Assembly: GCF_964019385.1 (NCBI RefSeq)
Contig: NC_088644.1
Span: 16,939,631-17,003,630, forward strand
DNA: 64,000 bases
Direction: 5' to 3'
From: Sycon ciliatum
Taxonomy: Eukaryota; Porifera; Calcarea; Leucosolenida; Sycettidae
Positions 4,901 to 53,501 of the stretch are shown here, in pieces. The position numbers and the translations under genes were made by a program. The notes beneath the pieces are model-generated. The model had not been told where the DNA came from and did not search any database. It saw only the letters and a program-made list of their open reading frames with translations. Position 1 is the first letter of the stretch. Each line of letters opens with the position of its first letter.

Positions 4901-7637
4901 TGAGCTGGACTCGGCAAAGGCAGTTATTAATTTTGGAGTAAGCTCTATCCGTTTATAGACGCTCCTTCATGCAGGTCCAAATCAATGGATTAGTGTTGAC
5001 TTCAGTATCGCTAGACATGCTATGGCCAGAGCCTATGGCATAACACTTTTTATTAACAGGAAACTCCTCTTCCTCTGTTTGATATTCACTTCGCGTAGAT
5101 CCACGTAGTCTCCTCCATCATCCATGGCTCTCCATGATTTCTAAACAATTCCTCGTAAATCATCGTTACGGATTTTGTGCACTTTGAAGCATAAACAGCC
5201 TCAGTTGCAACGTTGGGCATGCTACATCACATGTACATTTACCTGACATTGCTACATAATGATAAAGACTGTATGTAGCAATGACATTACTGTATGTAGT
5301 CAGGTAAATGTAGCGCTAAAGAGTAAAGGTGTTACGTGTGACGGTGTCTACACTCACAAAGTCATGTGCCGGTACAATAGTATGGCGTTGCACCTCATGC
5401 AGTCATGGCTTTAGCCGATTGTTGCCAAAAACCATGAGATTTCCCGACATTATCCACTATAAAACTCGTTATGCCGCTCAAACCTCACATAATGCTCGTC
5501 TTGTTCCTTCCTAATGCTCCATAATGCTCTAATGCTCGGATAGTCTTATAATGCCGAATATAATGCCGGCATTATCCGCTGGACCCTGGGGGGGGGAGGG
5601 GGGGCTGCGCCCCCTACCCCTCTTTGGCTAGAACCCTGCACACTATACACACTGGCCCAAGTACGAAATGCAGATCTGATATATTCACCAGGCGCGTCGG
5701 AACGACTTTGGAAGTGGGGCGGCCATGGAAGGGGGGTCCGGGGCTCCTCCCCCGGGAAAAAATTTCAAAAAATAAAGCCAATTGCAAGCATTTCCGGGCA
5801 TTTGGTGCCATTTCAGTGTACGGTAACTACAATGAAAGACTTTTTGATTCTGCAAAAAACCAAGAAGATGCTACGATCGGGGACAAACATTACCCTCCCC
5901 CGGGAAAAAAATTCAAAAATTGAAGCCAATTGCAAGCATTCCCAGGCATTGACTTTTGATTCTGCAACAAACCACGATCGGGGACAAGGATTTGCCACGT
6001 TTGCGCTGAGATCATCGCGCTTTGTTGCAGTGTGCTAAAAAAAAAAAAAAAAAAAAAACTGCCGAAAAAGTGGGGCGGCCATGGCCGCCCCGGCCGGTGC
6101 GGTTCCGACGCCCTTGTTCACTAAGTCGCATGAACTGACTGTGGGGCAGCATGCATAGCAAGCATGTATTCAAAGTATGGAGGTTTCTCGTTGTCGCCCA
6201 GTCACCTACCTCAATTATTTGCGCATGCATTACCAATCTACCAGCACCGGTGCATGTCTTTCTTCTGACCATACGAATTTTGCCACATCATGATTGTATG
6301 AAGCACCGGTGCACCATGCGCATGCATTGCTCCTGACATCGCAAGATTTCGCACGCATGCACGCACAAACCTACAGTGCAGGCTGTCGTAATAAAACGAC
6401 TCATCCGTGTTCCATTCCCGTGCATGTCACATGCATGGTGCGACGGCACAATGACAGCTGTCGCAAATCACACTGAGTATTACACGTGTTTGTTGGTGAT
6501 TCCTGGTTAGCTGCTAGCTTTTCCCTACTCGAAGATGTTGCCGCCGCGAAATCTGGGGGTTTGTGTTCGTCCTGGCGAAAACCGTGTTTTGATCCGTTGA
6601 GGGAGACGAGAGATACAGTGCGAAGACGTACGATCTGTCCGAGAATCGGCGAAGAAGAAAGCTTCGCAGACGACCCGTAGTGGTTGGGAACAGAATGGAA
6701 CATATACCAGTCGATGCCTGTCATGGTAGGGATGACTGCTACGAAGTTTTAGCCCCATGCTCCCCAGCGCTTTTTAGCGCCCGACGATAATTACCAAATT
6801 TCATCGATTTTCCATGTGGATCAAAGCATAGTCTCCTCAATCTTCTCCAGTCGAGCTGAGTCTGGACGCTACAATGTCGAGACGCGAAAAGAGAACATGC
6901 ATGAACACACAGGAGCATCACATGCAGCTGCATTCTGCCTTGACGAAGCTGAGAACAACACCAGCACCACGCATTTGGAAGACATTTCGAAGAAGACGAA
7001 GAACTACATATCTGCGTTCAAAAAAGCCTCTGAACTGTGCAGTATCATGCCAGTATGCATGCGTGCATGCGCGAAGCACGCGGTCCGCGGATCAACTACT
7101 TACTTCGTTCAAAAATTATTGTGCCACACGGGTTGTATGATTTGTGTGCGATCATGGCGCATGGCCTTTCTTCTTGACAAACAAAACTGAAGTTTTTCGA
7201 TCTTCAAATCGCCATAGCGTCCTTGTCATGACTCCAAATCAGCTGAAACTTCGCAGGAGGAATGAAAATGCCATGCTGAATCGATTGGTACCATTTTCGA
7301 AGGGTTTCCTTGAAAAATAAAATTTAGCCTGCACTGGCTACCTACACGGAGGGGAAAGGTGTGCTCAGAAGACATAAAGAATCGCTACCACGGACTTCCA
7401 GTTCTTCTCACCTGTGAAAATCACACCTTCCCTTGCCATCGTGTCGATGTTCGGAGTTCTCACTTTCGTACCGCTCCTTGGGTAATGTGGACCTCCATAG
7501 ACACCCACGTCTCCATAGCCCCAGTCATCGGATAACATCAGGATGACATTGGGACGATCATCGGCTGCCGCCGGAGCGAAGATCCCCAGCTTTGCGGCTA
7601 CTAGTAGCGCGCAAACACAGATGAGTGGCGCGGTCAT
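1946..7637 (-). CDS. Arylsulfatase (two coding exons)
   Basis: Hydrolyses sulfate esters; predicted secreted or lysosomal. Exon 1 is 7637-7412 and exon 2 is 3216-1946, giving 498 codons plus stop. The donor is ACAG|gtgaga and the acceptor gctgcag|ACTAC; the split codon gives Asp76. Residues 1-25 are a hydrophobic signal peptide (ATG at 7637; an upstream in-frame alternative codon exists at 7706). Family marks: metal-binding DDWGYGD near residues 37-43, the sulfatase signature CSPSRAALMTG with formylglycine-precursor Cys84, the GKWHLG block, HIAHAK, the TADNGP metal site, and a WRGRKRSLYEGG region. Length and order of motifs fit ARSA/GALNS-type sulfatases, so the gene looks intact. The exact substrate (glycosaminoglycan, sulfatide or other) cannot be read from sequence. 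The 4.2 kb intron is made largely of inverted-repeat elements. Confidence 0.93.
3278..3575. mobile_element. Mariner-like MITE with 26-bp perfect ends including TA
   Basis: The first 26 bases (3278-3303) are the exact reverse complement of 3550-3575. Each end begins TA-CCGTAAAAGTCCG, consistent with a TA target duplication. There is no coding capacity. It starts about 60 bp inside the arylsulfatase intron acceptor. Confidence 0.85.
4107..5588. mobile_element. 1.48 kb non-autonomous element, ends YAGGGTCCAGCGGATAATGC
   Basis: Terminal inverted repeats of about 20 bp (19 of 20 matching; left end T, right end C). Many ATAATGCTC-type subterminal repeats lie within about 120 bp of both ends. It sits between G-rich tracts; the flanking five bases are GGGGA and GGGGG, a possible 5-bp duplication with one mismatch. 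No transposase was seen. A smaller inverted repeat (5235-5247 against 5299-5311) lies inside. Confidence 0.75.
5689..6116. mobile_element. MITE copy A with TTCAC 5-bp target duplication
   Basis: Ends CAGGCGCGTCGGAAC and, at the far end, the complement of CAAGGGCGTCGGAAC. TTCAC flanks both sides exactly (5684-5688, 6117-6121). A G-rich subterminal block is followed by CCCCCGGGAAAA, and a perfect 20-bp palindrome centred on CCATGG lies at 6072-6091. It belongs with the copies at 32991, 37220 and 52769. Confidence 0.85.
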
Positions 7638-9996
7638 GGTGCGACCAACTGAGTGCTGTGGCGGCGATACTTCTGTGCTCCGGGTGAGTGATGCTGCACC
7701 ATCCAAGTCACACCGTCTGGTCAGTTGAAAGCTACTGCCCTTTCTACGAAACTAAGATGTTGCTCGAAAAGTAACCGTTTATATCAAAGAAAAATGCTGG
7801 ATTCACAGTGTAGATGAAAATTGGGTTGCACCCTCACCTCGAAAACCTACAGTGTAGGTATACAGACAGGCCGAGTTGGGATAGTGGCTGCTGTTCCAAC
7901 ACAGCTCTGCCCTGCACAGGCATGGAGTCACCTACTGGGCAAATGGAGACATCCCCAGCCAGTGCCTAACTGACCAAATCAAGACCGGGCTACAAATGTA
8001 GGTAGACCGATCTACCGGTATGCCCACGGACTGAGGGGTAGATCTACGGCGGAGGATCACCAGATCAGATCACGGCCCCGACTTACGTTGACAAGTGGCA
8101 CACGACCTAGCAACGGTCCAGTGGCAGATGCAGATAAGAGGCTGGACTTCGAAGCAAGATTTCAAGCAGCAGCTCCACCACAGTCACTGAGTCAGTACAC
8201 GTAGGTAGATCTACTGCCTAGTATTCTGGTATTGGGCAGAGTAGAGCCTGGGGTAGATCTACTGTTAGGCACTTCAGGCGATTTTTTCAAAACGAGAAAT
8301 ACGCGTATTTCTTTTTTGTATCCGATTCAGATAGGTTTAGGAAGACTCCACAGAAAATTTGAAGCAAAAAGAATAACTTGGCACAGAGATATAGCCACCC
8401 AAAGTCGGAGAATTGAATAACGGCATTTTCAGTATTTCGACGGCACCAGCAGCATATCAGAAACTGGCAGAACTTGCTTCAGTGTCTATAGTGGCAAAAT
8501 ACCAGGCTCGCTGGAAGCAGGTCAAAATAACCAGATGAATGCAGAAACAGCATGGTTTGGAGAAACTTCGGATTTTTCATCCGTCCGGCAGCTCCGACGA
8601 AGATATCGGGTGTGGTCACCATGGCAACTCCATAGCAACAGCATAGCAACTCCATCGCAACAGCATGAAAACAGTGCAGAGAAGCCTTTGGAAAAGCATA
8701 AGATGAGACTTTGAGGTAAGATAAAGTAACTACAATAATTCAGTGCCAGAACACATTGTTGCTACATGTACAGTACTGACGTGGTGACGAGTACGGAACA
8801 ATGTCCCGAAGACTGAGCAAACTAGAATTTACCGGGTATTTGACGGAAAGAAATGACAAACTATTACATGTAGAACATCGTCTGCAAATTTTTGGGACTA
8901 CTGAAACTTCAGCAACTCCAGCATGAGAGATTTTGTGCATAGAGTGTGTGCTGGATTCTTGGTACAATATCACCGTCAATGCTTTTCTTGGTCGCTGGAA
9001 GCCACCTGCTGATCAACTGACGATTTGTTCCGAGCAGGCCGTTTTGATGTCAGCTCTCTTGGTCCAGTCGCCGAAGTATATACTGTCCTACTCGTCGCCT
9101 GCAGGAGAGGACGACTGCTCCGATGCGACTCCAATAACACCTGGCAATATTTCTTCTTGCGCAGCCATGCGCATGGGCTCCGACGAACAAGGACTATTGC
9201 CGGGAGGACGCCTGTCGCGGTTCGCTTCCAATAACACCTCGCATTATTTCTCCTTGCGCAGCAATGCGCAAAGTGTTGGACGAACGAGGACAACTGATTC
9301 CGAAAGGAAATACGACGCTGAAGACGATGAGCTACATGGCAAATGCGTGCAACCAAGTGAAATGCCCGAAAAATCCTTGCCGATTTTACTCGAACTGTAC
9401 GTGAGTTCAAAAAATTGCCGCATCATGACGTATGTGGGCTCAAACGAAAGCTGAGGGCCTCAGCTACATGCTGCGCCACACGAGAAGGCCCTGCGCAGCT
9501 TCCGTGTAGCTACAGATCGATCTATGCATGCGCCTTTCCTTGGTGCCATGCATGTACGCGATTCAGCGTTAGCACTTTTTGACAGGTCATGTCACGTGAC
9601 TGAAGTGCCTACTACTGTTGCTACAGGTGTAGTGACGTTGGAACTAACTAAATTACTTGGCAGTCCCCTCCATCACTGACAAATACCAGGGTTCTAGCCA
9701 GATAAAGATAGTACTAGTAGGGTGGCCTGGGGCTCCTCCTTTGGCTAGAACGGGCCTGAGCATGCTGATGAGCTATGGCCAGTATGGCGGGCCATGTGTA
9801 TATGGACTACAGTACCATTGCCTACCATTGTAGTCCATACACATACACACACACACATGGCATGCACACATGGCATGCACACATGGCATAATAAATATCT
9901 TTGGCAAACACTAGCTAGCAAATCTCAAACCTCCTTGCACGCATGGATGTGCACAGTGCATACAACATGCCACAGATATTGCAATATTGTGGTCTG
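7638..9996. other. Gene-free stretch upstream of arylsulfatase
   Basis: No supported gene. It contains three exact copies of the palindrome GTAGATCTAC (8038, 8205, 8253). It also holds an imperfect 97-bp-offset duplication around CCAATAACACC (9131 and 9228), a relic with ends resembling CAGGGTTCTAGCCA (9688-9757) and a small AC/CATGG repeat near 9842-9890. An open frame at 8933-9454 lacks an ATG start and any recognisable domain. Confidence 0.6.
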
Positions 9997-10399
9997 CAGT
10001 GTCTGCTCCAGCGCCGGATGAGCCGGGTAATCCACCCGGTTGGGCGGCGCTTGGACCCGGTTGAAAATATAGTACCGGGTTACCTGTGACCCGGTTGGTA
10101 TTTTACACTTTGAAATGACTGACTACATGGCTTGTATGTGTCAGATACTTCTTCTTCTTTCGTAATTTTCTAATTCCTGTCCTCTCTTTTCTAAATGCGG
10201 CTTATTCATTCGCCTTTATATCATTGGGCCTAGTTCCCGTTTATTGTCCGAATTAAAATAAACCAACCAGTTAAAGCATGTGACTCGGCTGGTGAGACAG
10301 CGCCGGGTACATGATTGTGTACCCGGCTCCGACCCGGTTGAAATGGTTGCGCCAGGTACACGTGTACCCGGCTGTCCTACAATCCTAGAGCAGACACTG
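9997..10399. mobile_element. 403-bp MITE with GTCTG 5-bp target duplication
   Basis: The ends are CAGTGTCTGCTCYAG in inverted orientation. GTCTG immediately flanks both ends. The interior carries many ACCCGGTTG or ACCCGGCT motifs in both orientations near the ends, possibly transposase-binding repeats. No coding capacity. Confidence 0.83.
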
Positions 10400-10960
10400 G
10401 TCTGACGACACGAAATTCCTTATGCTCTCAACTGTGAGCTGTCACAGAAGATGATTTCACAGTACTACGAAATTGAATACCATCACCCATGCATGGATCA
10501 TTCAATCCTGAGGTGTCTGTAGTAAAAAGTCAAGACTCTTAAACAAAATGTTGAAAAGGTTACTTCAAGGAAAGTCACCCGTGATTGCATGACTGTGTGG
10601 CTGCAGGCTCACCAATGAATACAATAAGTAGATATTTCAAGATAAGTGCATATTCCGTGTAACAATGTTACATAGAATATTCACGACATAATAACAACTT
10701 GAGAAATGCAAGAGCTGCAATGTGTTTCATGCTATTTTGGAAATCACGAAAGAGGTTGGATGCATATTTCACGTTACACGTATATATGCTTGATTAGATT
10801 TCCAAGCACCTTTGAATAGGCGACGTGGAAATATTAGTGAATGATACAACAAAGATCAATGTTCAAGATGATTATAAATTAGATAGATAAAGCACAATTT
10901 AGGCTTCTATTTCTTCTCCATTGGTATCTGAAGTAGTCGTCCTGATCAAGCGGCAAATAG

Positions 10961-22653
<11,693 letters not shown>

Positions 22654-26130: not shown

Positions 26131-26370
26131 AAATTACAGTGAATATTTCCAGTCAACTGGCGAGTATACATAACTTTTGCTTAGGAGGCCTTATTGGCGT
26201 ATACATTGAAAATTATTTTTGAAAAGGTCCATGATTAAAATAGAAGAAATCACATGGAAACGAGTTATGAAGCAACTATCCACGACTGTAACAAGATATT
26301 CTATTCTAATAATATTTACTGGCTCAGTATCCGAGTTCAAAGGTCCATGGATTTTTTTACCATTGTGTAG

Positions 26371-28210: not shown

Positions 28211-28957
28211 CAATACAAGAAACAAAGCCGTGATTAGTCCCATGTAGGCTTTGCTCAGCTCAGCCTCGCCGCAAGCTAGAGTCACGTGGATTGGCTCCAC
28301 TGCGAATAGAAAGGAGCGGCCGCGATATCACTTGGTGAAATTTTTACAATACCGCCTTGTTTGGAAGTGTTTACACTAAGAGTACCACACTGGAGCAGCG
28401 AGAAAGGGAAAGTGACTCACAACAAAAGTGTGATATCACGTGCACCAGCCCGAGATGAGGGCGATGTGACTCCAACAGCTTTGTTTCTATTCACAAGACA
28501 ATATTTAAAAGATGTCCTCAGAAATCAGTTTTAAACTAGCATACCCAGTTCTGTATCCACACTCTATTTAGTCTGTTTTTCTGCAAAATTAATTGAGATT
28601 GCTTGATAATTCTGTCAAGATATGCCATCAGGTCTTTCAATCCCTGGTGCACATTATCACCATTATCAAGTTCTCAGCCTGGTAAATGCCGTATTTCCCA
28701 CCGTGTGCCAATATCACTTGAGACGCCTAGTACTGTAAGTATACAGCATTGTGGCTGCTATGTAATTTTGGCTATATTCACAGTACTGACCCAAAACGCC
28801 TAAATTAAAACGCTTAATAAAAATTTTCACATTGTCTTTGGTGATGTACTAGTATTTATCGTGCCGAAAATAAATCGCTGCAAAAATGTCAAAAATCGTG
28901 AAATGCCCCAAAAAATTACAGGGCCGAAATTTTGTATTACAGTAAAAGCAGGTTTAA

Positions 28958-30246
28958 AGGGGAAGTGCATCGATTTTTCGAGTAGGGTCCAGAAGAAAGA
29001 CAATTTGATATCGGTTCGAATGGCATATCTCTCGCTTCCATACGATAAGCCAAACTTGCCAAATCGCCAATTGTATACTCACGTTGCCATAGCGACCAGC
29101 GCAGTGATGACGTACGAAAGGCTTAGCTCCACCACAGAGAAGGTCGATTCACTGCAGAAATTGGTCATTTTCAATTAATATATGTGACCAGGCAGGCACA
29201 GTGGGTTGGTCAAAGACCATGATTGAGATACGAGAGGTACCTGGTTCAAGTCCTGCCTGGGAGCGGTTTTTCCAGCCGTGCTGCTACCCACAGTCAACTG
29301 GGAACTTGTGGCCAGGCACAAGGGGTACATGGATGCAGCTAATGGGGTCGCTTTCGGCACTTGTGCCAGTGGTTGTGAGACTTACCCACTCACCCCCACC
29401 GTTAGGCGCTGCATCTGCCGCTAGGGTTTATCGGGTGTTAGCGGCCGTCGTGAGTTCCCTTCGGGAACGGATACGATAATTTACTTATTTACTTACTTAT
29501 TGTATTCACGAAGTGAAAGAAGGGCTGTGTTCAATGCTGTTAGTGCAGTGAACTGTTTATTAGTAGTCCTCTCGGTTGCGTACTGGGACGTGACACCGAC
29601 AGGAGAAAGCTGGAGTGCGAAAACATCAGCAGACAAGCGGAAATAGTGACGAACAAAATGCTGAAATCTTGGTTGGGACGAATCAGACGTTCAGCATTTC
29701 CCCCAACCAAGCTCCATGCCGTTTGCTCTTTCCACTTCCTGAAGATGGATGTGATGCTTCCTGGCGACTCTCCTATCTCTCGTAACATCTTCTGAAGCCA
29801 GGTGAGACGACGGGTGGTGGAGATTGACGAATGAAATAATGTCGTAGGTTTAAAAGTTTGCTGAAAATGTCTCAGGAGAGATCGCGAATACCAAGCATCT
29901 TCTCCTAGAGGGACCATTTCCCAGGCACAGTCAGCAAAGGGAAATGTAGGAGAAGGCCGATAAACAGTTCACGGCACTAACAGCATTGAACACAGCGCTT
30001 CTTTCACATCGTGGATACAATAAGACAATCATGAAAATGACCAATTTCTGCAGTGATCGACCATCTCTGTGATGGAGCTAAGCCTTTCGTACGTCATCAC
30101 TGCGCTGGTCGCTATGGCAACGTGAGTATACAATTGGCGATTTGGCAAGTTTGGCTTATCGTATGGAAGCGAGAGATATGCCATTCGAACCGATATCGAA
30201 TTGCCTTTCTTCTGAACCCTACTCGAAAAATCGATGCACTTCCCCT
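28958..30246. mobile_element. TTAA-flanked fold-back element (Kolobok/piggyBac-like)
   Basis: Arms of about 290 bp start AGGGGAAGTGCATCGATTTT and are flanked by TTAA at 28954-28957 and 30247-30250. The left arm (28958 to about 29175 and 29500-29570) is interrupted by a SINE, while the right arm (about 29955-30246) is continuous. The central loop (about 29570-29955) has no recognisable coding sequence. The TTAA duplication and an end starting AGGG favour a Kolobok-type origin; this is inferred. Confidence 0.8.
29180..29500 (+). mobile_element. tRNA-derived SINE
   Basis: A B-box-like GGTTCAAGTCC at 29243-29253 lies about 35 bp after an A-box-like GTGGGTTGGTCAAAG, the internal RNA polymerase III promoter layout. 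The 3' end has a TTTAC/TTACT-type simple tail (about 29477-29500). It interrupts the left arm of the surrounding TTAA element, so it is younger than that element. Confidence 0.7.
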
Positions 30247-30441
30247 TTAAGCAACCACCCCACGGTGCAAGCAAAAGCGGCCGTTAAAGCCAGGTGGTCT
30301 TTAGAACCAGGTCCCACAGTGTCTGTGTACAGCTGTCGGTGCGTGGAAAAACGGTCCTAAAGAGCAGGTGGTCGCTAAACCCAGAGGTCGCTAAACCCAG
30401 AGGTCGCTAAACCCAGAGGTCGCTTACACCAGGTTTTACTG

Positions 30442-31799: not shown

Positions 31800-34700
31800 C
31801 TACTCTTCGCTGCCATCATCCCTAACGAGTCCATCTACCATCTGGGATAGCTAGAAGAAAAAGACAAAATACAAAGCTCCGGACATGAAGAACTCGCCGG
31901 AATGGTGAGCCAAGGAAATATTAAATGGAAAACATGGAAAACGGTGGGACGCAAGTTATGTGTTAGAGTCCACCAACTAAACCAGATTTTGAACAGTCAG
32001 CTGTGCACAAGTTAGCACCAGACTGACAAGGAGTACTGAGACAATCCACGGCAAGGAAGTGAGCTTGAGCATTGCTCGATAGCGCTGACCAACGGCCTTC
32101 CAACTTTGGATGTTCATGGATATTAGTGATAATTCCAAGAATAAGTAATGAGAGGGAAGCTTCGCTTGATAAAATTGAGCCTCCCAGATTGGGCGGTTGG
32201 TGCTTTTCGTTGTCGAAATGTGGTTAGACCGTATTGCCCAATGGTCTTACCGTCGCGCTATCGTACCAAGCCGGCATTCCATTGTGCCTGGAAATGTAGC
32301 TTGTGGCCGGCTAGTGCAAGATTCCAAAAATTGCTTCCAACCCTTTCTTGGCAATGGTCATATGGGGATGGCGCAGGATTGGAGACTAAAAGTAGAATAT
32401 TATATGAGATACATTTTATATATTTGGAACCATCATCAAACCCGGGACCTCCTTACTCCACCTCGCCGGGTCTGATCTCTCACAAGTATCATAAGATCCA
32501 TGATGTCGCTCAAACTACAGATAATTATGTTGGGGGGGGGGGGGGGGGGGTTATCAACTTACGGAATAAGCATCATCAAACTCTGCACACGTCATCCTGG
32601 AGAAGTAGCTTAGGACTTGCAGTTCTTCGCCATTCTCCGTCACTGGCATTATGCGGTGTAGCGGACTGCCTCTCAAGTTGACTCTGCGGAGCTGTATGGG
32701 CAGCGGTGGCAGAGTGCGGTTCCCACAGGTCCTCCTCGCATGTTCATAACGGTCATACCCGGCCACTTCAGCAGGCTCCACTGAAATCTGAGCAGTGAAC
32801 GGACACACACCGAGTAATGTAGATACTGTTGACATAATACTTATTATGGTGGTGCCAAACAACTTTCCACTATTGATTTGTGTAGTGGATTATAATTATT
32901 TCAATTCATGTCTGTTCTAGATAATAGTTCGCAGTACTTCGAAGTAGTAGTAGGTTCTTTTTTTTTTTTTAAATCCGCACATAGTGAGAGCAGGGGCGTA
33001 GGAGGGGTTTTGGAAGTGGTACGACCGAAGGTTGGCGCGGCCAAAGGCCGTTTTGGAGGGGGGTCCGGGGACCTCCCCCGGGAAAATGTTGTAAAAAAGA
33101 CAAAAAATCCTGCGTTCTGGGACTGTTCAGTGTGCACGTGCAGTGGAGTCGAGTACACTAGGCTATAGTGTAGGGTACAGTACTCAATACGACTGCAGAT
33201 GCATGGCAGATGCATGGCAGATGCATGGCAGATGCATGGCAGATGCATGGCAGATGCATGGCAGATGCATGGCAGATCTACGAGTACGAGTCTACAGTAG
33301 AAAAAGGTCTGATTCGCATATGCAACGCGTTAACGATGGATCCTGATTTTTTTATTACGGTTTTGCACGTTCCGGACGGACCACACTTTTCGAAAAGTGG
33401 TACGGCCATGGTCGTACCAGTCGTAGCGGGTGCTACGCCCCTGGAGAGGAACAAGTACTGGTAGTGTGGCTAATGGCATATGGTTAAAACGAGTGCAAGA
33501 ATATCAGAGGGAGGTGTATGGGTGCTACACAGATCGTACTTCCAGAATGTTTGTCACAGCAAAAATATGCACCACCCTACAATAAACTTTGGAGTTTAGA
33601 TCGGGTTGAATTTGGGGAAATCTGAAAATCCATCCTGTCTGGGCGTATTTGACGAAGTATAACATACCGCCGGCATGTATCCACATGTACTGGGTACTTA
33701 CTACGCTAGGTCTCATTAGTAGATACTGACAAGAAAGGACCTGTAAGGCGCTCGCCCAGGACTTGAACACCACATCGGCAACACCTGCATGATGCCAGGC
33801 AGAAACGAAATCAGACAAACCCACGAGCGATTGGCCACCCTATAACTCCATGCTCATGGTTTTATCTAGAATCCAGGCCGACCAATGAAGGGAACAAGAT
33901 AGGACAGACACCTGAGACAGATAGAGGCAGTGACCACGCAGTGACAGTAGGGCAGATTTCAAGTTACTTGCAATAATAATTATGTACCCTTTAAAATCGC
34001 AATGAAGCCGGAACACCCAACATACCCTTGCATCTTGGGTGCAAACGCATGTACTAAAAATTAACTTGAACTGTACATAAATATACAGAATGACCGTCCT
34101 ACTCTAGGTGAGGAAGAACTGCGTGTACACACACTATGCAGCCTGCACATGCACATGCACTTCAAGACAAGTATTAGGACTGTACCAGTGAACTTGTCTG
34201 TAGCTGGGTTCACGAACATGGTGCTGCAACCACGGCGTACCTGGGTTGCAAAGAGACAGGCACAGCGTTCAGTGTTATACGACTACAGACTGTGCAAGGA
34301 ACAGTGCATGCTGAGAGCTAGACAATCATGTGAAAACCTGCACCGAGTTCTGGATGGACTTCTAGTGTGTTCTCAGCTACAAAAATCTCCAAGGAATTTG
34401 GCTTATCAGCTGGACACTGTCTACAGCAATATTACAGATTTCAAGGCTTAAACCTGGCCGAAATCAAAATATTATACCAAGGGTCTAACAGTTCAAAGTT
34501 ATTCGATTGAATAAATGGTAGGCGCTAGGAGTGGGCTTTCCCGACATCCCGGAGCTAGAGACCAACAACGAACAGTGTAGCTAGTGTTTCAGCTTCTTCT
34601 ATTTGCTGTGAAAAGTAGTGCAGTCGACTCCACTTATAACGAACTCGCATATTGCGAATTTCGTGATAATATAGCGAATCCTTGTCCATGTCCCTGTTTG

Positions 34701-37219: not shown

Positions 37220-37959
37220 CAGGCCCGGCGGAAGCAATTGTTCATTGGTCCGGCCAAGTTTTTTCGCCAGCACAGCACTTGCGCATGTGTGACACAACAC
37301 AACGTCTCTTTGCTCATCGTACGTCAACCATATATGACGCCTGACAAGAGCGCTTCACCACTGTCTTTTTCCCAAATTCCCGCCGAGGAAACGCGAAGGA
37401 AGTGGTTGGGTGGACTGGCAGTTCTGGCACAGATATTTTGCTGGAAAAAGCCATAGCTGCTAAGCATGCACTGTATTAAAGCTGACCAAACAGCAAGAAA
37501 AATTTGAAAAACTACTTCGTTCAGTACAAGAATCTGAAGCACTCGACGAAAAACCCTCAAGACTACAAAATTTACAATGACTATGTTGAATCAAGAGTAC
37601 ATAAAAAAGGTTTACACACACAACAGAGGCGAAAGGCTAGGCTCTGTTAGCTGTGTAAAAAAGGTTTATGTACTCTTGGTAGAATCCATCATGGCACGTG
37701 TTAGTTTCAGGTCGCGCGACTCGCGCCACGGCACAGCCCCACAGACGTTAGGTCTACAGGCTACAGCTAACGTTAGCCCTCGATCAAGCGCGCACGCGTG
37801 CACGGCAAGATCAGAGCGAGATCGCAAGTACGCGTAGATCTACGTACATGCAATCGATGATCACAACATAACGTTACTGCGTCGTAAAAAAAGATGGTCG
37901 GTGGCCGAAAAGTTGGTCCGGCCATGGCCGGACCGACCGGAGCGGCTCCGCCGGCCCTG
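37220..37959. mobile_element. MITE copy D with TAGCT 5-bp target duplication
   Basis: Ends CAGGCCCGGCGGAAGC and, inverted, CAGGGCCGGCGGAGC; TAGCT flanks both sides (37215-37219, 37960-37964). The right subterminal region has the perfect 20-bp palindrome GGTCCGGCCATGGCCGGACC at 37915-37934, and a partial copy lies near the left end (37246-37257). Confidence 0.85.
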
Positions 37960-39789: not shown

Positions 39790-41185
39790 ATGTCCACTGC
39801 AAGGCCAGCTAACGCTCGCCGCGTCCAGTCAGCTGTGGATGCCTGCGCTGCAGCTCTGAGGGATCTCACAACATCGGACGATCTCAGCCAGCAAAGCTAT
39901 CGTGTCGGTCAGGCGGTGGAAATCAAAATCAACACCAGCGCTCCGGACGCCTGCACACATCTGCGTTGTGAAGTGAATAGCGACCAGAAGGGAGCAGAGT
40001 GCGAGCAAGCTGAGCTGCTCAAAGGCGAACAGGAAGGATGGATTGTGCGCTTCGCACCATCTGCTGAGGACACGTACATCCTCTCAGTCACATGGGCGGG
40101 AAAGCACATTAGCGGATCTCCGTTCCGCCTCAGGTTCGTGTCCGCGTCGGAACCGAAGAAGATCGTCGTACGTGGAATTGGAGATGGCACGCACTGGACA
40201 GTAACGCAGCCGGTGCAGTTCAGTGTGGACACGCGCTCGGCGGGCAAGGGACAGCTGATAGTGCGGGCATCCGGACCCACCCAGGGCATACCGAAGTTTA
40301 ACTTACATGACAATGGCGATGGCACGTACAAAGCAACGTACATACCCAGTGCAGTCGGCGAGCACAGCTTTGATATCACCTATGCCGACGAGCCAATACC
40401 AGGTATGTCTCCGAGCAGTGTTTCCCATGCACTTGCCTCTACAGCATGAACATATCGCTTATACACCGAGGTTCGGTTTAAGAATCATAGTCACATTGGC
40501 CACTGACACTGGATATGGTAGTGTAAGAAACTCTTTCAAACAATACGTTCTTCTTGCACCTTGGCAAATTGGCACATAACCCTTAGGATTCCAATGCACT
40601 CCCACAATATTTACTGTAGGAAGTGGGATATTAGTACCTTGCATGGGATATTAGTACCTGGCAACTCACAATGAGTGTGCAGCAAAGACTCAATGCTGGT
40701 CAGAAAGGAAGGAAAGCTTTTAGTCTGCACTCGGCAACCTTTTTCGGAAATCGGGTCTGAACAGCACTGCATCAGTGTATGAGCACATTGAGCAGGGAAG
40801 TTGATGATTAGAAAGCCAGCGGCTGTATTGATCCAAACAAGCTTCCTCAGAGACAGGAATGCTAGAACACTAGGGAAGAGCACAAACGTTATAATTATTA
40901 TTATGACTGATCGGATCGTTTCAATAGGCCTATTCCAGCATGCTTGAGCAGACACCCTTTCTGGAATGCTCACACATTTTTTGGAGCATACTAAAGAAGA
41001 TTACAACTGGCTGGGTCGTTCAAAGAACTATTTTCAGGCAGGGTCGTTCACATTTCCTAGCCATACTGGACATAGATAGTAACCTGAGGCAGGTCTAATG
41101 TGATGGTGTCACCAGGAAATGCTTGTTCACACATTGCACTCGTAGTGACACAGCATGTACACACATACATATACACACACCTACA

Positions 41186-41229
<44 letters not shown>

Positions 41230-43297: not shown

Positions 43298-43349
<52 letters not shown>

Positions 43350-44902: not shown

Positions 44903-47097
44903 GTCACAACCATGCAAGCAGACACAGGTGGCTGTGCTCGAACCCCACAACAATACCTTTGGTACACCATCGTCCCCGGCTGTCGCGAGACTGCATATAC
45001 GTCATTGAACGCCTACGCTCTGGAAGCACTTCTCCAGTGGCTTACTTGTAAAACGATTGTGCTCTGACTCCCCCGCCCCCGGTGGCTTGATAAGTGAACT
45101 GCGAGTGGATTCTGTGTGCGTATATTTGATCTCATTCTGACCCAGTCAGACTTTTCGGCGCAGTGTTGTACATTCATGATCCGGCTCAAGTGGCTTGAGG
45201 CAAACATGTAGCTTCTTACTCCCTGTATTGAATATGCTGGCGTGTTTTGCTGAGCATTGCACACCAACCCGATGAGAATATTGCTGCTTTCAATCAGGAT
45301 CTGATTAGCCTGGCTCTCTAGCTCTGGCAATGGCTATCATCAAATATGACTGGATTAGCCCGTGACATAGCTATTTTGCGGTCAGTCTCGCATGTCCACT
45401 GTCAATTTCATTATTTCGCTACCGGTAACGGAATTGACGGTGGACACCCGAGTTCTTATTAAAAGGACCAGCCCACAGAAGTGTGTATCCGTTTGCATGA
45501 CCATTCAACTTCAAGTAGCCATGTAACTTGTTATACACTGTTTGCCGTTGTCATCTGACGCCATAATATGAATCAATCAGGGCCAGGGGTCGCATCGGAC
45601 AGGCTATGGTCACTAACCGTGTATTGACCATACCACTCTTTTTGCTCCACTTAGGCCGGCTAAGGCCCCCCCCCCCCCGGCATGAATTAATAACGTAGTC
45701 TCGCAATAGGGCTCCAAATCAAGTTTCAAATTTTCGGCCGAGAGTCACCCCCACTAGTAAATTGTACTTCAGATGGCTGACCGTGATACCCTAACGTACC
45801 TTCCGACGGACCTATCATTGTATAGAATTTAGAGGAAAAAAGCTCACCATGTCCCACACCTTCGCTGAATCTGAATCAGTGCTGAAGGCTTGGATAGAAT
45901 TTCTTTCATTGTCATGTTGAAGTTCGAAGCAAGATCAAAGAAGGCTTGTAAAATGTTAATACTACTTGTACAGTACTATGACATAATTTTTTGTTTGGAC
46001 TTGACGTGTAGTATAGTACTACTAGTACAATCATAAAGCAGTGTGGCCCTTTTATGGGTGCGTTATTATTATTATCTTTATTTGAGGGATGACCCAGAGG
46101 CAGGTAGCCTATCGAGGGGTTCTCCACTTGTGCGATATTGAATAGGTGATCAGAGTGTTCTAAGTAACTCGCGGATATAATAATGGCCACAATATCCGCG
46201 AGTTACTTATTATAATCGATTAATCATGACCCACATGCCGATATGGGTCATGTCAAGAATTTGCCCCTGCTGGGAGGTTATTATACAATCATGATACTCT
46301 TGATCATGTTGATACTTCTCATCAAACCGGCTCCCAATCCATCTGTCTTTATCTCTCTCTAACTCTCCTCCATTCTCACTCTAATCTTTCGTCAAATCTG
46401 CCCGGCAATCAGCCTCTACTTTCGCCTCAGCATCATGATCTTGATACTGCTATATTTGTACTTGTTTGCACTCATATCTTGGAATAACAAGTAAGTTTCC
46501 TGGTTTCCTACCCCTACACTAGTAAGGCTTAGAGTTCTTGCTCTCCTGCTCCCCCGGGAGTCCCCGCCCTTCCACTTCCACTCCCCATTTTGTTTCCTTT
46601 GGTGCACATGTGCAGCTGTGATGCCGAGACCCTTGGTCGGCTGAGCTTCACAGGTCCCACCCACTCCGTCCTGCTGGATATGTACCATTAATGCCCATTG
46701 TGTCGAATCACAGTCTTCTCCTCATTTTAGTTCATCATGCATGCAGTGAGTGTTCAATAGTAAAAAAAATAAAAATACAATTATTCATATCATCGGACCG
46801 GGATCGGGAGGTACGAACCCGGTTTATACGGTACATTTTTTACAAATATACCGTAAAGTACCGTATACGTATACGGTGAAAGAGATTTTTGTACGTCAGC
46901 TCAGAATGAGAATGACCATGTGCAGCTGCATGCTCTGTTTGTTTTTGAAAAAGTTGTACGCTTGATTTGTACCTTGGCCTCGTGTTGTGCACATTGCCAC
47001 TGTAGTGTAGGTGGAACAACTCGATTTATAATTATAATAGTAATTACATCTTGTCTCTCTTCCTCCACCCACTCGCCTTTCTCTCTCCTGCCTTACT
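44903..47097. other. Gene-free stretch between filamin-type and TPP1-like genes
   Basis: No gene was recognised. It contains the filamin-type 3' UTR, a perfect 18-bp hairpin (46161-46178 with 46192-46209) and, near its end, the TPP1-like promoter region with AT-rich sequence around 47020-47045. Confidence 0.5.
46161..46209. repeat. Perfect 18-bp inverted repeat with 13-nt loop
   Basis: TAAGTAACTCGCGGATAT pairs exactly with 46192-46209. It could be a tiny element remnant or a structured RNA; nothing else supports either. Confidence 0.9.
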
Positions 47098-48744
47098 ATG
47101 TTCAGCTGGGTCTTGTTGGTGAGCGCGGCTCTCTTTCAAGGGAGCCAGGCTTTCACTGGCCTGCGAATGAGAGTGGAGGCGGGTCAAAGTATTGCAGTTC
47201 CAGAAGGTTGGACAGCAGAGAAAAAAGTCCAAGAAACCGAAGGGATCTCTTTGGTTTTCGCAGTGAAGCAGCGTAATCTTCAGCAACTGGAGGATCTCTT
47301 CTGGAAAGTATCTACACCCGGCACAAAGCATTATCGCCAGTTTCTCTCCCACAATGAAATAAATGATTTAATTTCCCCCGAGCAGACGTCGATTGACACC
47401 ATCACTACATGGCTGTCAGAAGCTGGTTTGGACGTTGAGAACAAGTGCAATTGGACGAAAGCGAAGGAGTTCCTTAGCTGCGTGATGCCATGCTACATGG
47501 CCAATTCGCTGCTGGACGTGACTTTCAGTGTGTTTCGTCATGGCGAAACTAAGCAAACAACTGTACGTGCTACTCACCACTACACATTGCCAGTGTCTGT
47601 GATTGGTCACATTGATTTTGTTGGCAATGTCCATCGGTTTCCGCCTGTCGCTAAGAGGACTCAGAGAGTGAAGAAAAGCAACGGTCTCGTAGAGCTGCAG
47701 ACTCCTTCCAGCTTGCGTGAACGCTACAATGTGGGTAGCGCCATTGCCGGCAAATCCAGCATCAACATCCAGGCTGTTGCACAATTCACGGGACAGTACT
47801 ATGGAAAGACAGATCTGTCAGAATTCTTCAAGCTGTTCGGCTCTAGCTTTGTTCATCGCGCTGACGTCGACAAGGTCATTGGACCGAATAAGTTCCCATC
47901 CGGTGGCGAAGCCAATCTGGACGTGCAGTACATTATGAGTTTGGGTGCCAATGCAACCACCTGGTTCTGGAGCACAGGTGGTGCGCATGAGAAGCAGGAA
48001 CCGTTCTTGCAGTGGATGCTAGACATTGCCAATGCCACTGTCATACCGCAAGTTATGAGTGTCAGCTATGGTGACCAGGAGAACTCACTGTCGGTTGACT
48101 ACATGGATCGTACTAATCAAGAGTTCATGAAGCAGGGAGTGCGTGGTATGTCCTTGCTTTTTGCCAGCGGAGATGCTGGTGCAAACTGTCGCAACCATGT
48201 GCTCCTGCCATTTTTCCCAGCGTCTAGTCCATACGTCACCACTGTTGGTGGGACTGAAGGTCTGCTTGATATCGGCACTGAGAGGGCCACACTTCTGAGC
48301 AGCGGAGGGTTCTCCAATGTCTATAGCCAGCCGCAGTATCAGACTGCTGCTGTCTCGCATTACCTGTCTACAAGTAAGTTCTTGCCGGCGGCCTCTTACA
48401 ACCGCACTGGCCGTGCATTCCCCGATGTGGCAGCCATGGCCATGGACTTCATGATCGTCGATGAGCTCATTCCACAGCCAGTTGACGGCACTTCGTGCGC
48501 CACGCCAACATTCGCCGGAATCATTGCCCTGATCAACGATGCACTTCTTGCCAGTGGTAAAAAGCAGCTTGGGTTTCTAAACCCTTTCCTGTACAGCCAC
48601 GCCAGCGCCCTTCTTGACATCACCGAGCAGTGCAGTGGTGGTTGTTTAAACAAGGGCTGGTGTGCTGCTGTAGGTTGGGATGCCGTCACCGGTCTAGGCA
48701 CACCAAACTATGAGAATCTACTCAAGGCGGCCATGGCTCAATAG
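47098..48744 (+). CDS. TPP1: Tripeptidyl-peptidase 1-like sedolisin (intronless)
   Basis: Lysosomal serine-carboxyl peptidase of family S53, removing tripeptides from protein N-termini at acid pH. The 548-residue length is close to vertebrate TPP1 (563). An 18-residue signal peptide is followed by a pro-domain containing the KHYRQFLS block, then the mature enzyme starting near residues 185-200. Catalytic residues are visible: Glu271 and Asp275 in GGEANLDVQYI, oxyanion Asp359 in ASGDAGA, and Ser466 in DGTSCATP. The calcium-binding end (DITEQCSGGC...GWDAVTGLGTPNY) is complete. Several N-glycosylation sequons occur. The whole frame is a single exon, unlike vertebrate TPP1 and unlike its neighbours. 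That could mean a retrocopy or simply intron loss. All key residues are intact, so it is probably functional. Confidence 0.95.
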   Translation: MFSWVLLVSAALFQGSQAFTGLRMRVEAGQSIAVPEGWTAEKKVQETEGISLVFAVKQRNLQQLEDLFWKVSTPGTKHYRQFLSHNEINDLISPEQTSIDTITTWLSEAGLDVENKCNWTKAKEFLSCVMPCYMANSLLDVTFSVFRHGETKQTTVRATHHYTLPVSVIGHIDFVGNVHRFPPVAKRTQRVKKSNGLVELQTPSSLRERYNVGSAIAGKSSINIQAVAQFTGQYYGKTDLSEFFKLFGSSFVHRADVDKVIGPNKFPSGGEANLDVQYIMSLGANATTWFWSTGGAHEKQEPFLQWMLDIANATVIPQVMSVSYGDQENSLSVDYMDRTNQEFMKQGVRGMSLLFASGDAGANCRNHVLLPFFPASSPYVTTVGGTEGLLDIGTERATLLSSGGFSNVYSQPQYQTAAVSHYLSTSKFLPAASYNRTGRAFPDVAAMAMDFMIVDELIPQPVDGTSCATPTFAGIIALINDALLASGKKQLGFLNPFLYSHASALLDITEQCSGGCLNKGWCAAVGWDAVTGLGTPNYENLLKAAMAQ

Positions 48745-49869
48745 GCTCTTTAGTCGTCTCTGTCGTCTTACCCCTGTTTTATTTGTATTCCTGGCCAGTT
48801 AGCTACTAGTATGCTGACAGGCATGTGTTCTGGGACCTCTCTTTCCATTAGCAATGCTCTCTTCTCTGACTTTACCTCCGTTTTGATTTGTTTTGATGTG
48901 CTTACCTAAATTACTAGGTCCTGCAGCTCTCCTTAGCCACTGTTTGAACATTGTGGTGTGATGAAGCCATTTTAGCTTCGGCTGAGTCGGTACCTGCCGG
49001 TACTCCACTGTGCTAACCTTTCAATTCTGTCACACGTGTGTTGTATTAACAAATTCTGCTGCTTGAATTTCATGCTTCTGCTACTGTCATCAGTTTCCAT
49101 GGAGAACAGTGCAGGACTCTGGAGTGATACATTGAACCTGCATGACCGTTGACTGGACCACTTTGCTGTGTATTGTGATGTGTGGCTTACTGGTGTGCAA
49201 GTATGATCAGAGTGCTAGTACTGCACGCTGCAACATGCAAACACAACCCAGGTGCATGTTGTTCAAGGTGTTGTGCGTGTGACAGCGAGACACCCTCCTC
49301 GAATTTTTTTCAGAGAAAGGTGTGGCATGTACACGTAGGTACAATCCTGCTCCAGAACATCTGATCACATGACTAAGCAAGCGTTCCACATCTGTGCTCA
49401 TGCGTGATGATGCCACTTTTCACAGCGCTGCGTCTAGTTTGGCTGCTGAAGTCGAACTTCGCTGAGCAGCATTGCATATTGGAGCAGAAATGTGTGTATG
49501 CACAGCACTCGGACAAGGTCCGGACAGTACTTGAAGTAATTTCTACTGTTAAATGCTACTGTATTTGCACTTTGAAAGCAGTCAAGTAGTGGAGGCAGGA
49601 GTAGCAGCAGTGCTGAGAGCAAGCTTGGCATCATGAATGTTGAGGCAGTGGGGTATCAAGCCAAAGGTTCTTAGTATCATCTAGCTGTGGCTGGTCATCA
49701 AGAAGTTGTTATGGTGAATAGCGTTATCATGATTGTGATAAAATAAAAGTGCCCAAAGGGGGCAAAATCGCCGCCAAATGCAAGCTAATGGTCTGAATCG
49801 GTCCACATGGATAGTGAATACATGCCAGCAAAACTAGTCCATTTTCTGTGTGGGAGCATCTGGTCCAGG
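48745..49869. other. Convergent 3' region
   Basis: Lies between the stop codons of the plus-strand TPP1-like gene and the minus-strand DUF4430-like gene; presumably both 3' UTRs. AATAAA lies near 49742 on plus and its complement near 48778. No other gene was seen. Confidence 0.5.
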
Positions 49870-52396
49870 TTAAGATGGTGGTGGTGGCGGTGGTGTTTCT
49901 TCGCTGGGGAGGTCACTGGCATACTGGGCACACTTCTTCAGCTGCTGAAGAATGCGGTCAAACAAATGCCAGACTTGCTGTCGAGAAGCTGATGGTGGAC
50001 TGCGCAGATTGCCCGTGCCAAATGGCCAGAGAGACTCAAACTTCTCCTGCAGAGAATTGAGTTCTGCCAAGCTGAGGTCTTCATCGGAGGATAAGTCCGG
50101 TGATCGCACATCCAGATCAGCATCTATCTCATTTTCAGTGGCTATATCCATTGCGTTATCGAAGACAGCCTCTGTATTTTCCCTAGATGTAGTGTCTAGT
50201 TGATTTGCAGACTCCACATCCAACTCTTGTTCTGGTGCTTCGTCATATTCTTCCACTTGTGTATCTTTCAGCATAGCCATTGGGTCACGTTGTGCATTTC
50301 TTTCCAGGCTCCGCTTGACTTCGACCGGTATAAGGCGAAATGTCACCGACTCTCCACCACGCCGGACAGCTGTTGTTTTGATGTCCGTGCCGACGTACCG
50401 ACTATTGATGAAGAGCTGCCACTCATGGTCCTCTGGTATGATGCCATTCAGACCCACCACGGATTGACCCCCTTTGCCCCTGTACTCGGTCGTGAATGAG
50501 TACGGGTTGTTGGATGGATCAATGTTCGGATTTTTGCTGTCATACACATTTGCCGCCTGCAGAGACAAGAACAGATATACACAACAAACACCTCAAGTTC
50601 TGCAATAAGCGACAAAGAAGGGTGGATAGCAAGTCTGCTGCTGCAACACAACAGGTGTTTAGTACACTTCGTCAACGAGTGTCTGTGTCCCATCCTTGTT
50701 TTACCCAGGGGCGGATCCAAGGGGGGGGGGGGGTTCTTCTGCGGAACCCCAATTTCGAGAACGTACTACTGGAAACCAGATGCGTGTATATGTACATGTA
50801 TCAGCTACAGTATTCAGTTTCGGCTAAACTGGAACCCCTGTAGAGATCTCTGGATCCGCCCCTGTTACCGATGTACTCTGCGCTGTTCATGAAAACAGAA
50901 CCAGGACCAGAGCAAGGGGGTGTACTTTGGCAAAATTGCGTATATTCACGGCAGAGTTAGCATTACTTGCTATGAACACTAGGATCTAAATATTCAAATT
51001 TGTTCAAAACTGGTACAGGTAGTATTCGCCTGTATCATTTTGGGTTCCGACCAGTATACCAGGTATACCCAGAGTAAGCTTGCCTATCTATACAGTAGTG
51101 ACGAGTACTAGTACTATCACTAAGTACATGGCCAGAACCTGCATGCTTTCATGTTGGAGTATGATCTCAAGACCAGTCCATGCTCAACACAGTGAAACAC
51201 ACATGGATCATGTGATTCATGAGCCAATCACTAGTCGACCACCTACACACGCTTACCTTCATCATTAGGTCCATGACAGTGGTACCACATGGCACCAGCA
51301 GATCCAGCTGAGGCGCGCACTTTGGACACACCAGTGTGTAGTGAACTAAGCAGAGGCAATCCTCACATGTCTACAACACAGATTATGGGCAAGAGAGGAC
51401 AACAGGGCCGTGTCAATGTCATTTTCTAATAGCAAGGACAGAAGTGGCAGTTACATAATCTCTCTACCTGCGCTCCCACATGGAGGTAAAAGAGGTGCAT
51501 TCACCTTTTTCAAGTTTGAGAAACAAGCCACAAGACATCTGCATCATGCATGAAAATACCTCAGACAGGACCTTTTAACCTTGTTAAGCCTAGCGTTTGG
51601 CATATTTCGCTGTTTTAGCCGAACCAAAATTAAGCCAGTGAAAACCGAATTTTGAGAAAAGAGTGATGGTACCATTGTCACACTGTGCGCTCACGCATGT
51701 CCTGATCATCTCTACAGTACCGTCGGTCATCGAAGAACTGGGGTTCAGCCTCGTAGCCTAGACAGTTATAATGTTCATGTACTTCAGTCTATGGGCAGTG
51801 GAGTAATCGTGTATACTGTGACATTGGTAACCTGTGTTTGGTGACATTCTAGACCGTTCATTCTTTGCTGCTCTGTCCTTGGGCGCCCGACAGTACTGCG
51901 ATCGTGGTCTGCTGATGTGTGTGTGTGTGTGTGTTTGTGTGTGTGCATGCGTGTGTGTGCGTGCGTGCATGCGTGTGTGTGTGCGTGCATGCGTGTGTGT
52001 GCGTGTGTGCTTGTGCGTGTGTGTCCGTAAGGTGTAGTCGACATCTAAGCCAAGATCTTTCAACATTGTCTTCACTCCATTTATTGGGATTACTCTGGCA
52101 TTCAATGAAATTCTCTAGGTGTTCTTCGCCGGGTAGTCCGACAAGCTACAGGGGAATGAAAGTACTCCCATGGTCTCCACTAAACTTACCGCGTCCGCCT
52201 CTTCACCATCGTAAACGATAACCTGGCGATTTCTCCGCCTCCTCTTTACTTTGCCAGTGGTGCCTAGATCATCGGTGTCATCATCATTGAGACTGGTCTT
52301 GGGTTTTCTCCTTTTTTTGTTGTTTTTTTGCCCACATGTTACTTGTAGAAGAACGATGAGGAGCAGCAATATTGCAAGTGTTCTGAGAAAGGCCAT
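49870..52396 (-). CDS. Secreted protein with DUF4430-like domain, 335 aa
   Basis: Exons 52396-52190, 51370-51257 and 50556-49870 join in phase 0. Splice signals are GCG|gtaagt, gttgtag|ACA, AAG|gtaagc and ctctgcag|GCG. Residues 1-22 are a signal peptide, followed by a basic, acidic-patched linker with a KRRRR run that could be a proprotein cleavage site, then a Cys-rich start (TCEDCLCLV, CPKC). The PCGTTVMDLMMKAA helix and the segment ending EWQLFINSRYVGTDIKTTAVRRGGESVTFRLIPV match the pattern of DUF4430, the fold at the C-terminus of cobalamin-carrier proteins. The C-terminal 110 residues are acidic and low complexity, ending TPPPPPPS. The function is unknown. An extra exon around 52030-52130 could be proposed but has no clean donor. 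The intron before the last exon carries an inserted MITE. Confidence 0.7.
50706..50864. mobile_element. 159-bp MITE with TTACC 5-bp target duplication
   Basis: Ends CAGGGGCGGATCCA, inverted; TTACC flanks both sides (50701-50705, 50865-50869). A poly-G run lies next to the left end. Inserted in an intron of the DUF4430-like gene. Confidence 0.9.
51917..52024. repeat. Compound (GT/GC)n microsatellite
   Basis: GTGTGTGT interspersed with GTGCATGCGT motifs, in an intron of the DUF4430-like gene. Confidence 0.92.
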
Positions 52397-52768
52397 CGTT
52401 CTGAGAACTCCTTCCTGTTCAAGGATACGGCAGAAAAAAGTATGACATAGATATTGAATCAAGTTCAATATGATAACGCCAAAGCAGGAACAAGGATGTT
52501 TTCCCGACAAATCATAAAGTTGCATGCCATCCAGAGTACATAACACTCAGGTCTTTCCATGGCACGTATGGTTGGCTATGAAGCCGAAACCCTGGATTGG
52601 TAGAGCTCTCCAAACCTCACCAATGGCAATGCTGTCACGGTTGGTGTCTGCATGCTTCTTCTGCACCTCATGTTCGGCATTTTTGAAAGCCACCCATGAT
52701 GGGCAGTAGAAAAAGCATGTTGTCTCATCAAGACTGTATAAAACAGCAGAAAAAGAATGTTCTGTACA

Positions 52769-53138
52769 CAGGGGCGTAGGAGGGGTTTGGAAGTGGTACG
52801 ACCGAAGGTCGGTGCGGCCGAAGGCCGTGTTGGAGGGGGGTGCGGGGACCTCCCCCGGGAAAATTTTGTAAAAAGGACACAAAATCCTGCGTTCTGGGAA
52901 CTTCTGGCACACTTCTGGCGCAGAGTGCAGTCGAGTCGAGTACAGTACTCAGTACGACTGCAGATGCATAACAGATCTACGAGTACGAGTCTAGAAAAAA
53001 GGTCAAAGTCTGATGCGCATATATTATGCATCGATGGATCCTGATTTTTTTCATTACGGTTTTGCACGTTCCGGACGGACACTTTTCGAAAAGTGGTACG
53101 CCATGGTCGTACCAGTCGTAGCGGGTGCTACGCCCCTG
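52769..53138. mobile_element. MITE copy C with GTACA 5-bp target duplication
   Basis: Perfect ends CAGGGGCGTAG; GTACA flanks both sides (52764-52768, 53139-53143). Near-identical to copy B at 32991 over most of its length, but with one rather than seven 11-bp internal units and a one-base loss in the CCATGG palindrome. Confidence 0.93.
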
Positions 53139-53501
53139 GTACATGTACTCTTGTTTCAAGGTCACCCCCCCCCCCCCGGCTTGTAACAGCAGGGTTGAAA
53201 GGATTTCATCATCTGTTTGATCCAAAGAAAGAAAGTTTCTAAAATCTTATGTTCATGTCAACATTCCCCACATTCCACCACTCTGCCCTATTATTATTCC
53301 TTGTTCACAGAATGTTCTAATACAAGTACAATCCAAGTCGTATGATGCAACTTTGAAGAAGAGTATGGTTATCTATGGTAAAACTACATGACTGTATAGC
53401 TAGCCTGTCACTGTGAGGTGTAACATGAAAATTATGAACCTGCTTCATAGCAGCAGCTGGGAGCCTAGAAAACTGCCTGCCGCTGCATGATCTCTCAACT
53501 A

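What the first reader, a model, noticed from the sequence alone, without database searches (positions are those of the whole stretch)
5689..53143. MITE group with 5-bp target duplications and palindromes whose arms covary between copies
Six elements (5689-6116, 9997-10399, 32991-33443, 37220-37959, 50706-50864, 52769-53138) begin CAG, end CTG, and each has an exact, different 5-bp flanking duplication: TTCAC, GTCTG, GAGAG, TAGCT, TTACC, GTACA. Most hAT elements make 8 bp, and one true 8-bp element sits in the same window. In four of them the right subterminal region contains a palindrome built on the same CCATGG core but with different arms: GGGGCGGCCATGGCCGCCCC, GGTACGGCCATGGTCGTACC and GGTCCGGCCATGGCCGGACC. 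The arm sequence also appears near the left end of the same copy. Keeping self-complementarity while the sequence changes suggests selection for a paired structure or for lineage-specific transposase binding.
Basis: partly seen in the sequence, partly recalled or inferred. Interest (0 to 1): 0.72.

Follow-up and report, generated by a model that had tools for sequence, protein, structure and literature searches.

The report
Miniature transposons with swapped binding sites
Six short 'hitch-hiker' DNA transposons in this stretch of probably animal DNA share one end layout, in which a short site, probably the landing site of their mobilising enzyme, sits at a nearly fixed distance from both ends and is doubled into a mirror image at one end; a similar arrangement is known from a transposon called Hermes, so this is a tidy new example rather than a new kind of thing.

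Summary
All six elements and their exact 5-bp duplications are there; one ends CCCTTG, not CTG. Two of the four palindromic copies (32991, 52769) are one family, so there are three independent palindromes, one of them imperfect.

Each element has a short word starting at nt 25-28 from both ends. In the four related copies left and right agree 9/9 there but 3-5 of 11-12 in the spacer; between families they agree 6-7/9. The palindrome is this word doubled at one end. Two elements unrelated in sequence show the same layout. The left copy changes with the arms, which favours lineage-specific transposase sites over a paired structure.

Closest known: hAT5 (hAT with 5-bp duplications) and the one-sided quasi-palindrome of Hermes, bound by two BED domains. 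A hAT transposase frame lies at 60020-62920, but no matching ends were found around it. The genome search did not complete, so genome-wide counts and the autonomous partner are untested.

The parts
5689..6116 (+). Element A, 428 bp; ends CAGGCGCGTCGG / CCGACGCCCTTG; 5-bp duplication TTCAC
5716..5724 (+). A, left site GGGGCGGCC, nt 28 from left end (shared word runs on to 5728)
6072..6091 (+). A, right palindrome GGGGCGGCCATGGCCGCCCC; outer arm starts at nt 26 from right end
9997..10399 (+). Element E, 403 bp; ends CAGTGTCTGCTC; 5-bp duplication GTCTG; no DNA match to A-D found
10021..10029 (+). E, left site AGCCGGGTA at nt 25; dyad CCGGGT/ACCCGG with 5-nt spacer begins at nt 27. The same word is at nt 27 from the right end, overlapping a second dyad GGTACAC/GTGTACC at nt 32
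32991..33443 (+). Element B, 453 bp; 5-bp duplication GAGAG
33018..33026 (+). B, left site GGTACGACC, nt 28 from left end
33399..33418 (+). B, right palindrome GGTACGGCCATGGTCGTACC (one G.T mismatch)
37220..37959 (+). Element C, 740 bp; 5-bp duplication TAGCT
37247..37255 (+). C, left site GGTCCGGCC, nt 28 from left end
37915..37934 (+). C, right palindrome GGTCCGGCCATGGCCGGACC
50706..50864 (+). Element F, 159 bp; ends CAGGGGCGGATCCA; 5-bp duplication TTACC; shared word GGGGTTC at nt 25 (left) and nt 27 (right), doubled at the left as GGGGTTC/GAACCCC with 7-nt spacer
52769..53138 (+). Element D, 370 bp, same family as B; 5-bp duplication GTACA; palindrome lacks one base
52795..52803 (+). D, left site GGTACGACC, nt 27 from left end
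60020..62920 (-). 966-aa open frame (stop to stop) with DUF4371 and hAT dimerisation domain; possible hAT transposase, not linked to the six elements by end sequence

Best explanation
The six elements are non-autonomous cut-and-paste transposons (MITEs) of the hAT5 kind: hAT-like ends (CAG...CTG) with 5-bp target duplications. Each end consists of a terminal repeat of about 13 bp, a spacer, and a recognition site of about 7-9 bp starting at nt 25-28. At one end, the one whose site lies about 2 nt closer to the tip, the site is doubled as an inverted repeat. I infer that the DNA-binding (BED-type zinc-finger) domains of a hAT transposase bind this site: two cooperatively on the dyad and one on the single site, so that the two ends are recognised asymmetrically, as in Hermes. 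Families with different letters at the site would be mobilised by transposase lineages of different specificity; both arms and the opposite end change together because all are copies of one site. Shown here: duplications, layout, concerted change in three families. Inferred: transposase binding, cooperativity, identity of the transposase.
For: Duplications: 6 of 53 strong CAG/CTG pairs, 0 in 40 shuffled windows. Left against right within a copy: terminal repeat 11-12 of 13, spacer 3-5 of 11-12, site 9/9 in all four copies A-D, beyond it 1-5 of 10-11; between families the site is 6-7/9. Concerted change of left site, outer arm and inner arm in A, B, C: the one best of 36 label arrangements, and 0 of 200,000 simulations of independent drift. 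Layout shared by 6 of 6 elements, including two without DNA match to the rest: word of 7 or more starting at nt 25-28 of both ends (random CAG/CTG end pairs 209 of 200,000), and a dyad of 6 bp or more beginning at nt 25-28 of exactly one end (random CAG starts 373 of 20,000), each time the end with the shorter spacing. hAT elements with 5-bp duplications are an established group, hAT5 (passages of PMC12730594; PMC9004415). Hermes has a quasi-palindrome of two subterminal repeats at its left end, bound cooperatively by two BED domains, and Tol2 a palindrome just after its terminal repeat (passages of PMC10368747).
Against: No transposase with these ends was found; the hAT frame in the window has no matching ends around it inside the window. 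Only three families show the CCATGG palindrome, and only 3 of 9 arm positions vary. The nt 25-28 limits were chosen after seeing the result. F is weak (7-nt word next to a G run; 93 of 2000 shuffles do as well at any position; E 10 of 2000). E has dyads in both ends and D a 5-bp left dyad under looser rules, so 'one end only' depends on the threshold. The sites (GG..CGRCC in A-D) are not the AAGT of Hermes, although AAGT directly precedes the left site in A, B and D.
Confidence: 0.72

Rival explanations
1. The end is selected as a folded structure (DNA cruciform, or hairpin in a transcript), and the arms change together to keep pairing.
For: Right ends of B, C and D fold better than shuffles as single-stranded DNA (z -2.98, -3.64, -3.01), and so does the left end of the unrelated E (-3.54). 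In the 4-row alignment the palindrome helix is 100% paired (one gap cell set aside, G-U counted as a pair), with two of eight pairs changed on both sides; for both hairpins together 2 to 12 of 500 shuffles reach the observed measures.
Against: A's right end folds little better than shuffles (z -0.85), E's right end not at all (0.32). The left sites of A and C, without a local dyad, change with the arms. The second hairpin is 83% paired and in a different register in C. B and D, half of the four rows, are one family.
Confidence: 0.12
2. The arms are kept alike by copying (hairpin-templated repair or repeated inverted duplication) without selection on the site.
For: Palindromes can be homogenised this way (general knowledge); the arms of A and C are perfect.
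Against: Does not explain why the distant left site matches the outer arm 9/9 in all four copies while the spacer does not, nor the same layout in E and F.
Confidence: 0.08
3. The elements, or some of them, belong to another superfamily with 5-bp duplications (for example a Transib-like group), not to hAT.
For: No transposase has been tied to these ends; E's ends (CAGTGTCTGCTC) are unlike the rest.
Against: CAG...CTG ends with 5-bp duplications fit hAT5 (duplication length; end sequences recalled); Transib ends begin CAC (recalled). A hAT transposase frame is present in the same window.
Confidence: 0.1

Closest known systems
hAT5 group of the hAT superfamily (Kapitonov and Jurka 2007; only its title seen, in the reference list of PMC12730594)
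   Same: 5-bp target duplications; hAT-like CAG/CTG ends (end sequence of hAT5 recalled, not checked)
   Different: Here only non-autonomous copies; no hAT5 transposase or Repbase consensus could be compared
Hermes and Tol2 (hAT), subterminal repeats (PMC10368747, passages)
   Same: Inverted pair of subterminal sites inside or just after the terminal repeat of one end; asymmetric ends
   Different: 8-bp duplications in Hermes; motif AAGT/AAGC at nt 11-27 of the Hermes left end rather than, in A-D, a GC-rich 9-mer and its inverted copy at nt 26-45; here the matching single site is also present at the other end at a nearly fixed distance
piggyBac/piggyBat palindromes (PMC11707139, passages)
   Same: Palindrome in the end bound by two cysteine-rich, zinc-binding domains of a transposase dimer
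   Different: Different superfamily (TTAA targets, recalled) and a different DNA-binding domain

Membership tests
hAT superfamily | Terminal inverted repeats with CAG/CTG-type tips (feature recalled) | tested here: met
   12-14 of 14 in the five CAG/CTG elements; A 12/14 with one tip changed (read)
hAT superfamily | 8-bp target duplication (usual) or 5/6/7 bp in hAT5/6/7 | tested here: met
   5 bp in 6 of 6 elements; group definitions in PMC12730594
hAT superfamily | Mobilised by a hAT transposase with the same ends | tested here: inconclusive
   hAT frame at 60020-62920 but no matching ends with duplication around it in the window; genome search unanswered
hAT5 | 5-bp target duplication | tested here: met
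hAT5 | Transposase in the hAT5 branch of the tree | not testable with these tools
   No hAT5 reference protein at hand; no autonomous element found
MITE | Short, non-coding, inverted ends, many copies | tested here: inconclusive
   159-740 bp; longest stop-to-stop frame 119 aa; only the B/D family has two copies in the window; copy number elsewhere untested
Hermes-type end recognition | Inverted pair of subterminal sites at one end | tested here: met
   Sequence layout only, at a 6-bp dyad threshold; E has dyads at both ends under looser rules
Hermes-type end recognition | Cooperative binding by two BED domains | not testable with these tools
   Needs protein and binding assay

The most novel reading that the evidence does not exclude
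Transposons with 5-bp duplications share an end blueprint that is kept although the letters of the site change: site at nt 25-26 as a dyad in one end and at nt 27-28 as a single copy in the other. The families in one genome would then be a natural series of specificity swaps, in which the transposase's DNA-binding domain and all copies of its site at both ends changed together.
Probability: 0.35. Interest if true: 0.55.

Novelty: new member of a known kind. Interest (0 to 1): 0.36.

Why it matters
If the layout holds genome-wide, the site letters of each family can be read from the ends alone and paired with transposase lineages, which would give a code for hAT DNA-binding domains and mutually independent transposon ends. 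If not, these are ordinary hAT5-type MITEs.

Tried and rejected
Genome-wide copies: the genome search (own genome, element A as query) returned 'busy or cannot be reached' in all 18 identical calls (2, 4, 12, 24, 31, 37, 40, 43, 47, 51, 55, 58, 61, 65, 69, 74, 78, 81), so excess of 5-bp duplications and arm covariation over the genome are untested.

Public collections: a palindrome pattern with open arm letters found 0 stretches in viral contigs and 1 in genome contigs, inside a 422-aa frame of a bacterial contig, rejected as chance. The exact B palindrome and a B-end pattern gave 0 in viral contigs; element B gave no match in plasmids; the transposase frame gave no confirmed relative in viral contigs. 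These collections hold mainly viruses, bacteria and plasmids, so the misses say little about animals.

Autonomous partner: among end pairs flanking the hAT frame inside the window, five reach 11/14 and none has a duplication longer than 2 bp; the right end may lie beyond the window. Further copies: a scan by layout plus a duplication of 4/5 or better listed many pairs, of which only B, C, D, E and F combine an exact 5-bp duplication with ends of 12/13 or better; the one other place with an exact duplication (3880-4089, ends 8/13) lies between G runs. A did not appear there, probably because of my low-complexity filter.

Terminal repeat as a further copy of the site word: in matching columns it follows the arms only in B/D, so not claimed (read).

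Literature: nine paper searches. Six strings, five of them from the terminal repeats of B-F and one a recalled variant, were found in 8 papers that by title concern other matters (listing only). Absence from Repbase could not be checked.

C-terminal part of the hAT frame: single-sequence model of low confidence (mean pLDDT 40.5), so no fold search was made.

Full report
What is there. The window (64,000 bases, 47.5% G+C) is probably animal: it holds filamin repeats, a sulfatase, the integrase region of a retrotransposon with DUF5641 and a hAT transposase frame (that DUF5641 marks animal BEL/Pao elements is recalled). All six elements and their 5-bp duplications are as described, except that 5689-6116 ends CCCTTG. 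No such pair occurs in 40 dinucleotide-shuffled windows. The sixth 5-bp element (5689) was not in that scan because of its changed tip.

Families. By DNA similarity, 32991 and 52769 are one family (B/D). 5689 (A), 37220 (C) and B/D share their last 51-56 bp at about 73-79% identity. 9997 (E) and 50706 (F) have no match to these four better than E = 0.86. The CCATGG palindrome therefore has three independent cases. A and C are perfect 20-mers, B has one G.T mismatch and D has lost a base.

The palindrome is a doubled end site. When each left end is aligned with the reverse complement of the right end, left and right within a copy agree at 11-12 of 13 terminal positions, 3-5 of 11-12 spacer positions, 9 of 9 positions of the arm word, and 1-5 of 10-11 positions beyond it. 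Between families the arm word agrees at only 6-7 of 9. So the word is an interrupted part of the inverted ends, and the right end carries a second, inverted copy of it. In B the left site equals the outer arm, not the inner arm, at the one position where the arms differ.

Concerted change. Taking left site, outer arm and inner arm in three families (A, B, C; D left out as B's sister), the observed pairing is the one best of 36 label arrangements. It was reached by 0 of 200,000 simulations of independent drift. That model is crude (star tree, equal rates). On the alignment of four right ends, the palindrome helix is fully paired (one gap cell set aside), with two pairs changed on both sides and one G.U variant. 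A second hairpin nearer the tip is 83% paired and has another register in C (the structure tested was one I chose).

Same layout in unrelated elements. E and F also have a word common to both ends starting at nt 25 (left) and 27 (right): AGCCGGGTA and GGGGTTC. All 6 elements have a shared word of at least 7 starting at nt 25-28 of both ends, against 209 of 200,000 random CAG/CTG end pairs from the rest of the window. All 6 have a dyad of at least 6 bp beginning at nt 25-28 in exactly one end, against 373 of 20,000 random CAG starts. The dyad end is each time the one with the shorter spacing: 26 against 28 in A, B and C, 26 against 27 in D (one base shorter than B in the left spacer), 25 against 27 in E and F. 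The nt 25-28 limits were set after seeing the elements. F alone is weak (93 of 2000 shuffles, any position) and E moderate (10 of 2000). With looser rules E also has a right dyad and D a left one.

Mechanism. Work on Hermes shows that two inverted subterminal repeats at its left end form a quasi-palindrome bound cooperatively by two BED domains, that the ends are asymmetric, and that Tol2 has a palindrome just after its terminal repeat (PMC10368747, passages seen). The layout here fits the same logic with another site sequence and position. hAT elements with 5-bp duplications are known as hAT5 (PMC12730594 and PMC9004415, passages seen). I therefore read these as hAT5-type MITEs whose palindromes are doubled transposase sites with lineage-specific letters. 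The binding itself is inference.

Structure as a rival. As single-stranded DNA, the right ends of B, C and D fold better than shuffles (z -2.98, -3.64, -3.01), and so does the left end of E (-3.54). A's right end does not (-0.85), nor does E's right end (0.32). The left ends of A, B, C and D, whose site changes with the arms, fold weakly (0.45, -0.79, 0.15, -1.60) (F was not folded). A structure is therefore not excluded, but it does not explain the left sites.

What is missing. The genome search did not complete (18 calls, listed under Tried and rejected), so copy numbers, the genome-wide duplication length and the autonomous partner are open. The 966-aa hAT frame at 60020-62920 (DUF4371 and hAT dimerisation domain; weak match to Hermes in the same domain, E 0.0023) has no recognisable ends inside the window, so it cannot be tied to the six elements.

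Noticed in passing
window 60020-62920 (-): Uninterrupted 966-aa frame of a hAT-like transposase with about 300 residues after the dimerisation domain (which ends at residue 659). Its last 226 residues have no Pfam match above cut-off.
   Followed up: partly
window 16462-17839: 1378-bp element with 170-nt inverted repeats (99%) and an 8-bp duplication ATAGAGAG in a GA-rich flank; interior has three 184-nt tandem copies.
   Followed up: partly
window 28954-30250: Element with 195-nt inverted arms (97%), 907 nt apart; tips read TTAA-AGGGGAAGTG on both sides, so it may be an AGGGG-ended element with a TTAA duplication.
   Followed up: no
window 37592-37678: Internal 87-nt inverted repeat (71%) inside element C, possibly a nested palindromic element.
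   Followed up: no
window 52799-52827: Element D left end has two small dyads with a GAA spacer, CGACC-GAA-GGTCG and CGGCC-GAA-GGCCG; in sister B the first is broken.
   Followed up: no
window 57513-59333 (-): Integrase region of a retrotransposon polyprotein (DUF5641, integrase zinc finger; rve below cut-off), with a GC-rich hairpin-like stretch just beyond its start at about 59375-59400.
   Followed up: no
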